Shown here: positions 33,081 through 38,152 of the stretch, in pieces | Position numbering within the stretch: position 1 is the stretch's first letter | Layout: every line of letters starts with the position of its first letter | Source: Halopseudomonas phragmitis | Lineage (GTDB): Bacteria; Pseudomonadota; Gammaproteobacteria; Pseudomonadales; Pseudomonadaceae | Length of the DNA stretch: 64,000 bases | NCBI RefSeq assembly: GCF_002056295.1 | Contig: NZ_CP020100.1 | Location: 1,201,501-1,265,500, forward strand | Direction: 5' to 3' | The notes under the pieces: model-generated | The model's database searches: none | The model's input: the letters and a program-made list of their open reading frames with translations, nothing else | What the model was told of the DNA's origin: nothing | Translations under genes and position numbers: made by a program

Positions 33081-33106
33081 AAAACCGGGCCTAGTGCCCG
33101 GTTTTT
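33081..33106. terminator. Bidirectional terminator between trmB and the DUF3010 gene
   Basis: A 10-bp stem (AAAACCGGGC / GCCCGGTTTT) has a 5-base loop, with a T-run on the plus strand and an A-run that becomes a T-run on the minus strand. It can end both trmB and the convergent DUF3010 gene. Confidence 0.88.
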
Positions 33107-33126
33107 TGTGGGGGTTACGTGGCTTC

Positions 33127-33564
33127 TTATGCGGCGTATTTGTCTTTCATCAGAAACGCATAGGCGGTGGTGAAGGCCGTCTCCTGATAGGCCTTGAGGC
33201 CAGTATCCGCGAACTCAATCTGAATCGGATTGCGTTTCAATAAGTCCTTGATCTCGGTTGTCGACAGAATGACCACATCAAGATCGCTGATCAGTTCAAT
33301 CGCCGCTTCCAGCTTGAAACCCACCGCACCACCGGCAAACTTGCCCTTCATCGGCCGCTGGCGAATAACCACCTTGTCCACAGGGTAATCCTGCATCAGC
33401 TTGGCAAAGGTCTGCTGGAAGTAGCGCAGCTCAGCGGTGCTGTGAACATCTTTCAGCGTCAGCCGCCGGGAGCGGCAGTCAGGCAACTCGAAAATGTCGT
33501 CGCTCAGCGACAGCAGACAGAGATTCACATCGTTACTGTTGATTTCAATGCCACAGACTTTCAT
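33127..33564 (-). CDS. DUF3010 family protein
   Basis: The 145-residue protein matches DUF3010 from its start (MKVCGIEINSNDVNLCLL), its RRLTLKD segment, and the VVIRQRPMKGKFAGGAVGFKLEAAIEL block; the fold looks like a small RNase H/actin-like domain. Function unknown. It is convergent with trmB. The start lies about 140 bases from an insertion-sequence remnant, so this gene is the last clearly native gene before the accessory segment. Confidence 0.88.
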   Translation of the reverse strand: MKVCGIEINSNDVNLCLLSLSDDIFELPDCRSRRLTLKDVHSTAELRYFQQTFAKLMQDYPVDKVVIRQRPMKGKFAGGAVGFKLEAAIELISDLDVVILSTTEIKDLLKRNPIQIEFADTGLKAYQETAFTTAYAFLMKDKYAA

Positions 33565-33727
33565 AGGGTGCTCGATTCGGGTTTATCCGGGCATTGTAGC
33601 GCAAAATGGTTGGGCTATATGGGGCTGCGCCGGCTTGGTGGTTCAGCTCGGTGAGTCATAGGGCAGGGGGCTTTCGAGGAGCTTCTATGGAAAGCTACGC
33701 TGTAATGACCCAGCGGATTTTGCACAC

Positions 33728-34058
33728 CTAAGCCGCTAATTGTTGATAAACCACGCTGGGTGTTTTCATTCCCAGCGCTTGATGAGGGCGTTGTTCGTTG
33801 TAGTACTTGAACCACGCTCTCAGCGTTGTCCTGGCTTCATCCAGTGACTGGAAGTTATGCAGCCAGAGGCACTGCTCTTTTACCGTTCGGATCAGCCGCT
33901 CGACCATTCCGTTCAGCCAGATGCTCGTTGATCCTGGGTTTGGCTTTGGTGGGCCGATAGTAATAGCTGCGCCGGGAAATACCGGACCAGCGACAAGCCT
34001 GGACTACCGTCACCGCATCGCCATTGGCCGCCATCTCGGTCACAACCCGCTCGATCAA
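33728..34058 (-). pseudogene. IS3 transposase orfB, internally deleted
   Basis: The N-terminal part reads MIERVVTEMAANGDAV, QACRWSGISRRSYYYRP; the C-terminal part, in another frame, reads NGMVERLIRTVKEQCLWLHN, then WFKYYNEQRPHQALGMKTPS, ending at the stop at 33728-33730. The two are joined near 33925 with the central DDE catalytic region missing, so the transposase is inactive. The C-terminal sequence is a standard IS3-family integrase ending. Confidence 0.88.
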
Positions 34059-34363
34059 TCGTCGGTCGATTCGAGATGGCGCTGTAACTTTTTTCGGAAC
34101 TTGAGCTCCAGCATGGCCTCTCCATAGGCTTCCTTGAGGTCACGCAGTTGCGACTCGTATTGCTCGGCAATGTCCTTGGGATTGGCCTTCAGAGCATTCT
34201 CCATGCCGGCTTCTGCATCATCCATCCACTTCTCGATCTCTTGCTGGGTGAGATCGTAGTGACGGGCAGCCTACGGAACGGTGGTTTGCCCTCGGTAGAT
34301 TTGCTTGATCAGCTCCGCTTTGCGTTTGGCTGTCCAGCGCTTGATGTCAGGTTCTTGCGTCAT
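34055..34363 (-). pseudogene. IS3 transposase orfA with internal stop
   Basis: The reading frame starts MTQEPDIKRWTAKRKAELIK and continues with a helix-turn-helix and coiled-coil region (ARHYDLTQQEIEKWMDDAE, later EAYGEAMLELKFRKKLQ). Codon 31 is TAG (34271-34273), where the family has a sense codon, so only a 30-residue peptide would be made. It overlaps the start of orfB, as usual for IS3 elements that use programmed frameshifting. Confidence 0.85.
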
Positions 34364-34507
34364 GCTTCACTCCATTTACTGAAGCGACTTTAGCATGTGC
34401 AGGTTTTCACTGGGTCATTACATGGCAGCGTTGTAAGATTCGATCCTCTTCCTTCAGATGCTTTGGCGGTATTGTGTGCCTCACGACAAACTAACCGGAG
34501 ATTTTTC

Positions 34508-34807
34508 ATGGGTCAGAATGTAGTGTTAACACCCGGCCGCCAGATGTACCACTTTGCTCAGCTTCGCGAAGAGGTCGGTGACCTCGGCTTGATCGGATTA
34601 ATGGCTGAAAGGTTGCTCAACACAGTGCACTGCTCTGCAGCTGCGGCCGTGCGGGCCGCTGCAGATCAGTTTGAGATTCTGGAAAAAATGCAAAATGGGG
34701 TTCCCGTATTTTCCGACATGCGGGCAGCAAAGGGACTGGGGCGCATGGGAGACAAGGGTGTAGTTTTGACGATTGACGCCTCAAAAGGCATCGGTCATGA
34801 GAGTTAA
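34508..34807 (+). CDS. Small protein of unknown function, first gene of a two-gene module
   Basis: I do not recognise this 99-residue protein. It starts MGQNVVLTPGRQMYHF, has an alanine-rich helical middle (CSAAAAVRAAADQFEILEKM) and ends in a short beta-prone stretch (KGVVLTIDASKG). There is no signal peptide or membrane segment. The ATG at 34508 follows CCGGAG by 7 bases. Its 3' end overlaps the start of the next gene (ATG at 34797), so the two are probably co-translated. Base composition is visibly more AT-rich than the neighbours, and an IS3 remnant lies just upstream, which suggests horizontal transfer. A partner, antitoxin or sensor role for the large downstream protein is only speculation. 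Confidence 0.65.
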   Translation: MGQNVVLTPGRQMYHFAQLREEVGDLGLIGLMAERLLNTVHCSAAAAVRAAADQFEILEKMQNGVPVFSDMRAAKGLGRMGDKGVVLTIDASKGIGHES

Positions 34808-36314
34808 TGACATGAGCAAACCAGAAAAAAAGGGCTCTGCTGATACTCGCTACGAACCGAATGTGTCGATCAGTGCTCTCGACAAAAAAGCTCGCTTTAA
34901 CGCCGATGACTTCTACAGGCACCTCACCTCAGAATTTGAGGTGACTGAGAAGGGTTATCAGCCATTGAAAGAGTTGATGGCTGCTTATGGCATCGATTCG
35001 ACTGACATCCTAGGCTCCGATTATCCAGAGGATCCTGACTCGCCCCCGCGCAATGATCTCATGCTGTTCGAAAAGGCCAAGCTTGCGGTTCTCGCAAGGC
35101 GGATGTCTGTGCGAAGCAAAAAATGGCGTCCCTATGCTTTGTTCGCAAAGCCATCGATGAGCGCTGTCCTAGGTTCGAAGGCGCCAAGTAGCAAATACCA
35201 TAAGCAAGAGCGGGATAAGATGCTCCTGTACTACCTCACAGAGTTGAAGAGCGGGATTCCAGCGCCGGCGCAGGGTTCTGCGCAACCTTTGTTGGAAAAT
35301 AACGATGGCTTTGAGCTAGCGGGCGGACGCTTTGAGCAACGCTCAATGGGGATGACCTACGTCGTCGCAAACTTCTTGGCTGCTCGTCAGCGGGAAGTCG
35401 TGGTAAAGAACAACTGGGAAAACGGCTGGAGGGATTCAGAAAACAAGCTTGCGTCCTGGCCGCCGCACGTTCCGCCCGAGTATGGCGCATCTGAAGCGGT
35501 AGATATAACGAGAAAAGCGTTTGTCGCCATGCTTGAAGCTGTCCCTCCCGAAGCATCCAAAGACATGGCAAGGGTCCGATTAATTAAGGATCATTTCCTC
35601 GACGCAGAATCGTCCCACTGGCGAGAGGCATGTGAGCTTGACAAGAGCCTGTTGGCTGACATTCCTCCCGAGATCAGCAGGTTAGACCTTCGCGTAACTC
35701 GCGATCATATTAAGGAAGGCGTCGCCAGCGCCTTAGGCGTTGAGGTTCATGATCTACCTGGGAATCTTGTCCGCCAGGCGGAGTGCCTCGTTCGCCTCTA
35801 TGGACATAAGCATTGCCCTAATATGACGAATCCAGAGAGACTTAGGTATTTCCGAGAACTCCAAGCTCCACACCAAACAGCGATGGCCGCAGTGTTACTC
35901 TTCAGTTTAAAGCGTACGTCCCGGCAGATAGTGCTCAGTCTCCCTGGCGAGACCCACTCCAAGGTCTATGTGCATAAGGCTTTTTTGATGGCGCTCGCAG
36001 CTGCAGGGGTTGATCTGAACGAAAGCTTAGAGACTAACGACCAGCAGCTAACATCTGTGGTCGACAACATGGATACCAAGGTACTGACCTACCTGACGTC
36101 GCTTTTCTCAATCGTCACCATGGCCGATGATGGTCATCGAAACCACCTCAAAATGGAGTACTTAGCAAGCCATCTCAAGGTCAAAATCGAGCGCAGGGCC
36201 CTCTTGGCTGAACTCCCGCAGTTGCTAAAACCTTACAGCTGCCGTTTGGCCTATCAGTTGATGGGAGATTTCATGTCCTGCCTATACGAACACACAAAAA
36301 ATCCAATGTCCTGA
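34797..36314 (+). CDS. Large protein of unknown function, second gene of a two-gene module
   Basis: This 505-residue soluble protein matches no family that I know. The N-terminal 30 residues are polar, and the first 160 residues are charged and helical. A tryptophan-rich middle (NNWENGWRDSENKLASWPPHVPPEYG, in two parts) follows, then helical repeats to the C-terminus. Two cysteines and a histidine cluster (ECLVRLYGHKHC) could bind metal, but no known zinc motif is complete. No Walker, nuclease or helicase motif was found. The ATG at 34797 has AAAAGG upstream and overlaps the previous gene; ATG 34812 is an alternative. Low GC and the neighbouring IS remnant point to acquisition. The setting resembles that of small defence or conflict modules, but function is unproven. 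Confidence 0.7.
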   Translation: MRVNDMSKPEKKGSADTRYEPNVSISALDKKARFNADDFYRHLTSEFEVTEKGYQPLKELMAAYGIDSTDILGSDYPEDPDSPPRNDLMLFEKAKLAVLARRMSVRSKKWRPYALFAKPSMSAVLGSKAPSSKYHKQERDKMLLYYLTELKSGIPAPAQGSAQPLLENNDGFELAGGRFEQRSMGMTYVVANFLAARQREVVVKNNWENGWRDSENKLASWPPHVPPEYGASEAVDITRKAFVAMLEAVPPEASKDMARVRLIKDHFLDAESSHWREACELDKSLLADIPPEISRLDLRVTRDHIKEGVASALGVEVHDLPGNLVRQAECLVRLYGHKHCPNMTNPERLRYFRELQAPHQTAMAAVLLFSLKRTSRQIVLSLPGETHSKVYVHKAFLMALAAAGVDLNESLETNDQQLTSVVDNMDTKVLTYLTSLFSIVTMADDGHRNHLKMEYLASHLKVKIERRALLAELPQLLKPYSCRLAYQLMGDFMSCLYEHTKNPMS

Positions 36315-36442
36315 TCAGGCTGCCGACTAGAGCAGCTTCTTGGTATCCTCAGCCTAGGGACCGATTGGCCATCTCTCTCGCTGAGGGAGGCCACTGCTAC
36401 CAAGCATAGGCGCCGCTGCGAGATACCTGAATCCCCCCAACC

Positions 36443-36643
36443 TCACCGCCTCCTCTTAAGCAACGGCAACACCGCCAGCACCACTAGCACGCCGCCAAGC
36501 ACCCGCACCAGGCCTATATCGACAGAGCTTCTGCCGGCACCGGTGTAGCCCATCCAGCGAAACCCGGTCTCTGGGTCGGTGGTCAGCATCAGCAGGCCAA
36601 GAACGCCCACCATCAACAAAAAGGCATAGGGGATCAGGTGCAT
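36443..36643 (-). CDS. Small two-span membrane protein
   Basis: The 66-residue protein has two hydrophobic segments (IPYAFLLMVGVLGLLML, about 4-20, and LVRVLGGVLVVLAVLPLL, about 45-62), a short polar loop and a basic end (LKRRR), which predicts a hairpin in the inner membrane. Function unknown. It starts 18 bases from the end of the LysR-type regulator gene on the same strand, so it may be in the same transcript. Confidence 0.6.
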   Translation of the reverse strand: MHLIPYAFLLMVGVLGLLMLTTDPETGFRWMGYTGAGRSSVDIGLVRVLGGVLVVLAVLPLLKRRR

Positions 36644-36660
36644 GGGTGTGTTTCTCCCTA

Positions 36661-37584
36661 TTAAGTCATCGCATTGGCGACAGGTGCATGTTTGGCAATC
36701 AGGTCAGTTACCCAGTCGATGAATACCCGTAGCTTGCGGCTGATATGCCGGTTAGGTGGGTAAGCCACATACAGAGGCATGCTATCGAGGGTCCAGTCGG
36801 TGAACAGGGGCAGCAGTTCGCCGCGCTGCTGAAAGGGGCTGGACATGTACTGTGGCAGCCAGAGTACGCCGAGTCCGGCCAGGCCGGCGGCGAGGTAGGC
36901 GTTGCCGTCGTCAACGGCCAGTGCATAGCGCCCGTTGATCTGCAGGCTTTCGTTCTGCCTGTGCAGGGCGTAGGGCACCGCCCGGCCGGTTCGCGCCCAC
37001 AGAAAGCCGACGATCCGATGCTCTGAGTCCTCCAGCTCGTGTGGATGGGCCGGGGTGCCGAAGCGCTCGATGTAGCTTGGTGCGGCGAACACGCCCAGTT
37101 CAAGATCACCAACCCGTCGCGCCATCAGCGATTGATCCATCAACTCGCCGCCGCGCACTACGCAATCGACATGTTCATCGATGATGTCCACCACGCGGTC
37201 GCTGACGCCCAGGTCAATCTGGATATCCGGGTAGCGGGCATAGAAATCAGGCAATGCCGGGACCAGAATCATGCTGGCCAGCGGGCTGGGTACGTCCACC
37301 CGCAGGCGCCCGCTGGGCAGGGCCGATGCGCTGGACAGGCTGGACTCGGCATCTTCCATGTCGGCCAGCAGTCTGATGACCCGCTCGTAGTAGGCTGCGC
37401 CATCGGCCGTTACGTTGACCTTGCGGGTGGTGCGATTGAGCAACTTGACCCGCAGGCGCGTTTCCAACTGCTGGATTAGCAGCGATACGGTGGTTTTGCT
37501 CATGTGCAGGGTTTCGGCAGCCTTGGTAAAGCTCCCGGCTTCTACCACACGGGCAAACGCCTGCATTGCGTCAAAACGGTCCAT
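36661..37584 (-). CDS. LysR-type transcriptional regulator
   Basis: The 307-residue protein has the standard LysR winged helix-turn-helix (MDRFDAMQAFARVVEAGSF, AAETLHMSKTTVSLLIQQLE) and a periplasmic-binding-like effector domain starting near residue 90 (GRLRVDVPSPLA). The ATG at 37584 matches the family N-terminus; the open frame runs to 37713 without support. It is divergent from a RidA-family gene with about 140 bases between them, so it probably controls that gene. The effector is unknown. Confidence 0.93.
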   Translation of the reverse strand: MDRFDAMQAFARVVEAGSFTKAAETLHMSKTTVSLLIQQLETRLRVKLLNRTTRKVNVTADGAAYYERVIRLLADMEDAESSLSSASALPSGRLRVDVPSPLASMILVPALPDFYARYPDIQIDLGVSDRVVDIIDEHVDCVVRGGELMDQSLMARRVGDLELGVFAAPSYIERFGTPAHPHELEDSEHRIVGFLWARTGRAVPYALHRQNESLQINGRYALAVDDGNAYLAAGLAGLGVLWLPQYMSSPFQQRGELLPLFTDWTLDSMPLYVAYPPNRHISRKLRVFIDWVTDLIAKHAPVANAMT

Positions 37585-37726
37585 TTTCGCCCCGGTTGAT
37601 CGGTGGATTGTTTGGCATTCACAAACAGTGCTGGTTAGCCTTGCGCGTTTATCGCCCCGGCGCAAGTTTCTAGAGTATCTCCATGGGGCTTTCACGGCCC
37701 GCCCAGTCCACATGATGGAGGTAGTT

Positions 37727-38122
37727 ATGTCGCAACGTGATGTTGTTTTCCCGCCTGGTCGCCATGCGCTCTACGAGCGCAACCGTTATTCGCCGGCGGT
37801 GCGCTCCAATGGTTTTCTGTTCGTGTCCGGTCAGGTCGGCAGTAAGGAAGATGGCTCGCCGGAACCGGATCTGAAAAATCAGGTGCGCCAGGCTTTCACC
37901 AATCTGAACGCGATTCTTGCCGCCGCTGGCGCCAGCTTCGAGGATGTGGTGGATGTGACGGTGTTTATCGTCGATCCGCAGTCGAAATTCGACATCATCT
38001 GGCCGGTGGTGCAGGAGTTCTGGGGCGAGCCGCCGCATCCGACGGTGACCGCGGTTGGTGTGACCTGGCTGTATGGGTTTGATTTTGAGATCAAGGTGAT
38101 CGCCAAGTTGCCGCAGCAGTGA
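37727..38122 (+). CDS. RidA family protein
   Basis: The 131-residue YjgF/YER057c/UK114-fold protein contains LFVSGQVGSKEDG, QVRQAFTNLNAILAAAGAS and DVVDVTVFIVD, with a late conserved segment (EPPHPTVTAVGV). Classical RidA has an arginine in IARVRP where this protein has VTAVGVTWL, so it may not deaminate enamines and instead belongs to another Rid subgroup. A strong GGAGG lies 5 bases before the ATG at 37727. It is divergent from a LysR-type regulator. Confidence 0.9.
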   Translation: MSQRDVVFPPGRHALYERNRYSPAVRSNGFLFVSGQVGSKEDGSPEPDLKNQVRQAFTNLNAILAAAGASFEDVVDVTVFIVDPQSKFDIIWPVVQEFWGEPPHPTVTAVGVTWLYGFDFEIKVIAKLPQQ

Positions 38123-38152
38123 GTTGCAGCCGCTCAAGATAGCGGGGCTGGG

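What the first reader, a model, noticed from the sequence alone, without database searches (positions are those of the whole stretch)
34508..36314. Two-gene module of unknown function beside an IS remnant
A 99-residue and a 505-residue protein with no recognisable domains overlap in an operon. They are visibly AT-richer than their surroundings and lie between a broken IS3 element and native genes. The small gene overlaps the large one, as in many partner-type conflict modules. The large protein has a possible metal-binding ECLVRLYGHKHC segment and a tryptophan-rich centre. This is the strongest candidate for an undescribed system here, but no function can be read from sequence.
Basis: partly seen in the sequence, partly recalled or inferred. 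Interest (0 to 1): 0.72.

Follow-up and report, generated by a model that had tools for sequence, protein, structure and literature searches.

The report
Mobile gene pair with swapped partner
Two bacterial genes of unknown family travel together as a small mobile cassette, and a relative of the small one sits with a completely different big partner at the very same chromosomal spot in a close relative, a pattern typical of phage-defence or toxin-antitoxin modules, although no function has been tested.

Summary
The pair is real: a 99-aa gene (34508-34807) and a 500- or 505-aa gene (34812 or 34797 to 36314) form an AT-rich cassette that most relatives searched lack. Five intact copies of the large gene were found, all in Pseudomonadaceae; all five have the small gene directly upstream. 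Six decayed loci were found. A 14-nt element lies 73-76 nt upstream of the small start codon in all five copies, and nothing beyond it is conserved.

The main new result is partner exchange. In a close relative (flanks 97-98% identical) the same slot holds another pair: a 106-aa homologue of the small protein (hhalign score 44.3; best of 200 shuffles 21.7) and a 495-aa protein with no detectable relation to the large one. A second copy of that pair exists elsewhere, and a third small homologue sits alone between a PDC-S06 ATPase and a retron RT.

Neither gene matches Pfam, NCBIfam, PADLOC, PHROGs or PDB sequences. Four of seven intact modules have a PADLOC-matching gene within 6 kb, but there is no background control. 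Best reading: a partner-exchanging conflict module (toxin-antitoxin or abortive defence) with the small protein as conserved partner. Function is inferred. The suggested metal site and tryptophan-rich centre are not conserved.

The parts
34434..34447 (+). Conserved 14-nt upstream element TAAGATTCGATCCT (consensus over five copies TAAGRTTVSATCCT), first conserved block of the module; candidate promoter or operator element
   Evidence: Present 73-76 nt upstream of the small start codon in 5 of 5 type-A copies, no conservation further upstream. With up to 1 mismatch, the pattern search of 7 genomes gave 5 sites, 4 of them at the 4 intact modules in those genomes and 1 elsewhere in G000; reversed control pattern 2 sites. 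RNA fold not better than shuffles.
34508..34807 (+). Small gene, 99 aa, type-A small protein (P0002); predicted helical hairpin; motif xYHF
   Evidence: no family in Pfam, PADLOC, NCBIfam, PHROGs; AF2 on the single sequence: helices 12-39 and 44-62 at pLDDT about 80, rest low
34812..36314 (+). Large gene, 500 aa from ATG 34812 (or 505 aa from ATG 34797), type-A large protein (P0001); no known domain
   Evidence: no family in Pfam, PADLOC, NCBIfam, PHROGs, no PDB sequence relative; AF2 model unusable, pLDDT 35
33606..36433 (.). Variable segment: window contents that are replaced by other genes (type-B module, SMC-like ATPase, HTH gene) in G018
   Evidence: blastn window against L025: flanks 33090-33605 at 97.9% and 36434-38129 at 96.6% identity, nothing between matched
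33691..34432 (.). IS remnant with inverted arms 33691-33713 / 34410-34432, ending next to the conserved element; probably not part of the module
   Evidence: no transposase domain by Pfam in three fragments

Best explanation
A small, horizontally moving two-gene conflict module (toxin-antitoxin-like or abortive phage defence). Shown: the two genes are inherited as a unit behind a conserved cis element; the module is AT-rich, sporadic and prone to decay; the small protein belongs to a family whose members are paired with at least two unrelated large proteins of about 500 aa. Inferred: the small, first-encoded helical protein is the conserved partner that binds and restrains (and possibly autoregulates through the 14-nt element) a large effector; when the balance is upset, for example by phage infection, the effector acts on the host cell and stops the infection. 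The effector's biochemical activity is unknown and was not deduced.
For: Co-occurrence 5 of 5 intact large-A copies, small gene first. Small A and small B homologous: hhalign probability 94, score 44.3 over 78 columns, 200 shuffles at most 21.7, reversed 12.4. Large A and large B not related: score 18.3, 60 shuffles up to 24.9. Type B replaces type A at the same site between near-identical flanks; type B recurs as a pair in G575. Module relationships do not follow the hosts: window large protein 66 and 64% to copies in other genera, 48% to the same-genus copy. Relics at 6 loci, two of them within 1 kb of a tRNA. PADLOC matches near 4 of 7 intact modules: Hachiman HamA/HamB with DarT in G639, AbiJ C-terminus 38 nt from large A in P. 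moorei, HsdR in G007, LmuB-like ATPase and HEC-09 beside type B in G018. Solitary small C lies between a PDC-S06 ATPase and a retron I-C RT.
Against: No functional data. No known toxin, nuclease or antitoxin fold matched. Defence neighbours were sought in chosen neighbour genes only, with no background control; none was found for the window, G757 and G575 copies among the 3, 4 and 3 genes tested. Large A is longer than most toxins of type II pairs (recalled). Small C has no large partner, which does not fit a simple toxin-antitoxin pair. No plasmid, phage or viral contig copy was found in the searches made.
Confidence: 0.45

Rival explanations
1. A phage-defence pair in which the small protein is not an antitoxin but a sensor or adaptor required for activity of the large effector; different effectors plug into one sensing subunit.
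For: Same partner-exchange pattern; proximity of known and candidate defence genes in 4 of 7 modules plus small C; the small C without a large partner could serve a neighbouring gene.
Against: No direct evidence separates adaptor from antitoxin; no defence model matched the genes themselves.
Confidence: 0.25
2. A cargo or maintenance operon of mobile elements (regulation of transfer, integration or establishment) rather than defence.
For: Neighbours include TnsD and TniQ in P. moorei, relaxase-like and integrase-like genes near the L007 relic (named by eye), tRNA or tmRNA near three relics.
Against: No intact copy was found in the plasmid, phage or viral collections searched; intact copies lie at unrelated sites with no shared mobility gene noticed.
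Confidence: 0.15
3. An ordinary accessory metabolic or stress operon of Pseudomonadaceae, with no conflict role; exchange with type B at one site is coincidence of an insertion hotspot.
For: No fold or family known; three of seven modules without a defence gene among the neighbours tested.
Against: Homologous small proteins with unrelated large partners, two of them at one site, high rate of decay (6 relic loci against 5 intact A copies), sporadic distribution (6 of 398 family genomes incl. 2 relic genomes).
Confidence: 0.15

Closest known systems
Panacea (DUF4065, PanAT) toxin-antitoxin systems, PMC8832971 (passages seen)
   Same: A conserved small partner combined with unrelated second proteins; two-gene units, small partner usually first; vicinity of mobile elements.
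   Different: No Pfam match of the small proteins to any family, Panacea included; only two partner types seen here; no toxicity shown; large proteins carry no known toxin domain.
Variable defence hotspots of Pseudomonas (cDHS1/cDHS2, PMC10250203; two passages and section 18 read)
   Same: Sites beside a small RNA gene (cDHS2 beside ssrA) where different immune systems replace each other at lower GC; the SJZ079 relic lies 8.4 kb from an ssrA tmRNA.
   Different: The window site (between a DUF3010 gene and a LysR gene) is not one of the two; no tRNA was sought in the window itself; thyA is not mentioned in that paper's text (one search found 0 for thymidylate).
Lamassu, Hachiman, type I restriction, AbiJ, retron I-C, PDC-S06 (PADLOC models)
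   Same: Found near some copies.
   Different: Neighbours only; the small and large proteins match none of the PADLOC models.

Membership tests
Type II toxin-antitoxin pair | Two adjacent co-directional genes, small antitoxin usually first | tested here: met
   5 of 5 type-A and 2 of 2 type-B modules
Type II toxin-antitoxin pair | Known toxin or antitoxin fold | tested here: not met
   No Pfam, NCBIfam, PADLOC match; PDB sequence and fold searches empty or insignificant
Type II toxin-antitoxin pair | Large protein toxic, small protein neutralises it by binding | not testable with these tools
   Needs expression and binding experiments
Type II toxin-antitoxin pair | Autoregulation through an operator upstream | tested here: inconclusive
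   A conserved 14-nt upstream element exists in 5 of 5 type-A copies; binding unknown; no sigma-70-like promoter on this strand
Panacea (PanA) antitoxins | DUF4065/Panacea domain | tested here: not met
   No Pfam match at E up to 10 for small A or up to 1 for small B
Known anti-phage defence system (PADLOC-DB 2.0.0, 2023) | Match of the components to a system's models | tested here: not met
   0 families for small A, large A, small B, large B, small C
Defence-island gene | Significant clustering with known defence genes against a background | tested here: inconclusive
   4 of 7 intact modules have a PADLOC-matching gene within 6 kb; chosen neighbours only, no background
IS3 passenger genes | Genes lie within the IS or recur with it | tested here: not met
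   Genes lie outside the inverted arms; copies at unrelated sites share nothing upstream of the 14-nt element. IS elements were not searched for at the other copies

The most novel reading that the evidence does not exclude
The xYHF small proteins (types A, B and C) are the shared core of an undescribed, partner-exchanging defence family of Pseudomonadaceae: one conserved helical subunit, with its own upstream control element, to which evolution couples different, still uncharacterised effectors of about 500 residues.
Probability: 0.4. Interest if true: 0.75.

Novelty: new variant of a known kind. Interest (0 to 1): 0.55.

Why it matters
If true, a single small protein family would mark a series of unknown effectors, so that its homologues could be used as bait to find further new immune or toxin proteins, as was done with Panacea. 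The two large families have no known relative and would be new effector folds.

Tried and rejected
Family libraries: no significant match for either gene or for the type-B and type-C proteins. PDB sequence search with profiles: large A only insignificant hits to penicillin-binding protein 1B (E 2), small A none. Structure: large A with a 2-row alignment, pLDDT 35, not used further; small A on the single sequence, pLDDT 59, Foldseek best E 0.77, none at 0.001 or better. Plasmids and phages by tblastn: none for large A (both), small A (plasmids only), large B (plasmids only), small B (both). Viral contigs, four scans: none.

Hits dropped: G199 (26% over 160 residues of a 593-aa ORF, E 6.6e-4), judged chance. 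In one search, 12 of 398 genomes matched; 6 of them (E 3.0e-4 to 6.6e-4) fall in one conserved long reading frame that looks by eye like a PAS sensor kinase and were dropped; the remaining six are 3 intact modules (G639, G757, G575), 2 genomes with fragments (G1274, G1387) and small C (G1206). One of these six dropped genomes (G628) also appeared.

RNA structure for the upstream element: folds no better than shuffles, z 1.1, 1.3 and 0.1. A sigma-70-like promoter upstream on the + strand: none found. Homology of large A and large B: rejected at this sensitivity. Small C against the type-A profile alone is weak (score 21.9, shuffles up to 18.2); it rests on type B (37.2 against 18.5) and the joint profile (38.2 against 20.5). 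Paper searches: nothing found that describes this pair; these are word searches of an open-access library only.

Full report
What is there. A 99-codon gene at 34508-34807 is followed by a 505-codon frame at 34797-36314. Alignment of five copies suggests that the large gene starts at ATG 34812 (500 aa), because the G639 copy starts at the aligned methionine and has no overlap. GC is 0.533 and 0.515, against 0.613 for the window. No family matched in Pfam, PADLOC, NCBIfam or PHROGs.

Distribution. Large A was sought in 58 relatives (4 matched, own and two relic genomes included), 390 genomes of the order (2 matched, own and one hit that I dropped), 398 of the family (6 matched, of which 4 intact and 2 relic), 369 of the class (own only), and in genome contigs by peptide patterns (17 stretches matched a pattern, 2 encode a relative: Pseudomonas moorei, intact, and Pseudomonas sp. 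SJZ079, a 47-residue remnant). These samples overlap. Intact copies number five: window, P. moorei (L006), G639 (L015), G757 (L016), G007 (L017). In all five the small gene lies directly upstream. Identity to the window is 66, 64, 44 and 48% for the large protein (P. moorei, G639, G757, G007) and 79, 79, 54 and 56% for the small one. The window copy is thus closer to copies in other genera than to the one in its own genus (G007), which points to horizontal transfer. Relics: a C-terminal part of large A in G024, pieces of both genes in G016, a C-terminal part in SJZ079, small-gene fragments at two places in G1274 and one in G1387. The G024 and G016 relics lie within 1 kb of a tRNA gene and the SJZ079 relic 8.4 kb from the tmRNA gene.

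Selection. Nei-Gojobori estimates give dN below dS wherever dS could be computed: 6 of 10 pairs for the small gene, 3 of 10 for the large one; the others are saturated. Example, window against P. moorei: 0.12/1.04 and 0.22/1.39. Most of these dS values are near or above 1, so the ratios are rough.

Upstream element. Anchored alignment shows TAAGRTTVSATCCT at 73-76 nt before the small start codon in five of five copies, and nothing conserved in the 45 nt before it apart from scattered columns. The pattern was made from these copies, so its presence in them is by construction; its rarity elsewhere is the test. In seven genomes with up to one mismatch it occurs at the four intact modules those genomes hold, and once elsewhere in G000; the reversed control gave two sites, both in G016. 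P. moorei's genome was not searched. RNA folding is not better than shuffles and no sigma-70-like promoter was found on this strand. I take it for a promoter or operator element of the module; this is inference.

Partner exchange. The type-A small profile, run on 37 genomes of the genus, also matched G018 at E 7.7e-5. That match is a 106-aa protein at L025:9266-9586, followed after 60 nt by a 495-aa protein (L025:9647-11134) and, convergent, a 949-aa SMC-like ATPase. The segment lies between the same DUF3010 gene and the same 66-aa/LysR genes as the window pair: blastn gives 97.9% and 96.6% identity in the flanks and no match for window 33606-36433. A second type-B pair is in G575 (70 and 58% identity). 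Small A against small B: probability 94, score 44.3 over 78 columns, against at most 21.7 in 200 column shuffles and 12.4 reversed. Large A against large B: score 18.3, below the best of 60 shuffles (24.9). So homologous small proteins go with large proteins that show no relation at this sensitivity. Six other genomes of the genus with a LysR orthologue (69-82% identity) hold neither module nor the DUF3010 gene in the 16 kb taken.

A third branch. A search of 398 genomes of G575's genus with the joint profile matched 12. Six of these are one sensor-kinase-like frame and were dropped. One, in G1206, is a 100-122-aa protein (L081:9473-9841) scoring 38.2 against the joint profile, with 20.5 the best of 150 shuffles; against type A alone the score is weak (21.9 against 18.2). 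It has no large partner next to it. It lies between an ATPase that matches PDC-S06 (1117.6 bits) and a reverse transcriptase that matches retron RT-Toprim I-C (E 5.7e-217), in an island about 9 kb from thymidylate synthase; the G757 type-A copy is also about 9 kb from thymidylate synthase.

Neighbours. PADLOC matches were found near four of seven intact modules: G639 (HamA, HamB, and DarT, the last weak in PADLOC at 6e-5 but 5e-16 in Pfam), P. moorei (AbiJ C-terminus, E 1.5e-7; also TniQ models), G007 (HsdR, 5.6 kb away), G018 (LmuB-like, 4.3e-19, and HEC-09, 9.8e-19). None was found for the window (3 genes tested), G757 (4) or G575 (3). I chose the neighbours by hand and ran no background, so this is suggestive only.

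Reading. The features fit a mobile conflict module: co-inherited pair, small gene first, own upstream element, low GC, sporadic presence, frequent decay, exchange of one large partner for an unrelated one at one site, and defence genes near some copies. They do not say what the large proteins do. Structure prediction gave no usable model for large A and only a helical hairpin for small A, with no significant fold match. I therefore hold the toxin-antitoxin or abortive-defence reading at 0.45 and the sensor/adaptor variant at 0.25. The nearest precedent for partner exchange is Panacea (PMC8832971, passages seen), but the small proteins do not match Panacea or any Pfam family. A related listing, PMC10440598, was seen only as a search listing.

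Noticed in passing
window 33127-33564 (-): DUF3010 gene (PF11215, E 5e-56) that borders the variable slot in the window and in G018; in G018 an XRE-type HTH gene lies next to it.
   Followed up: partly
L025:11341-14190 (-): 949-aa SMC-like ATPase with LmuB-like PADLOC match, convergent with the type-B large gene in G018; absent at the second type-B copy (G575).
   Followed up: partly
L081:6390-14460: Defence island near thymidylate synthase in G1206: PDC-S06 ATPase, solitary small C, a membrane protein-like 324-aa gene and a retron I-C type RT; G757 carries the type-A pair near the same gene.
   Followed up: partly
L015:10044-13887 (-): UvrD-like helicase, DarT and an ADP-ribosylglycohydrolase in overlapping, co-directional order, ending 230 nt upstream of the type-A pair in G639: a DarT unit with a glycohydrolase rather than a listed DarG.
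   Followed up: no
L018:6369-7787 (-): DUF6035/DUF7830 protein with weak CoiA-nuclease similarity beside the G024 relic near a tRNA-Ser gene.
   Followed up: no
L006:4873-7715: Tn7-like TnsD and a second TniQ-like gene upstream of the P. moorei copy.
   Followed up: no
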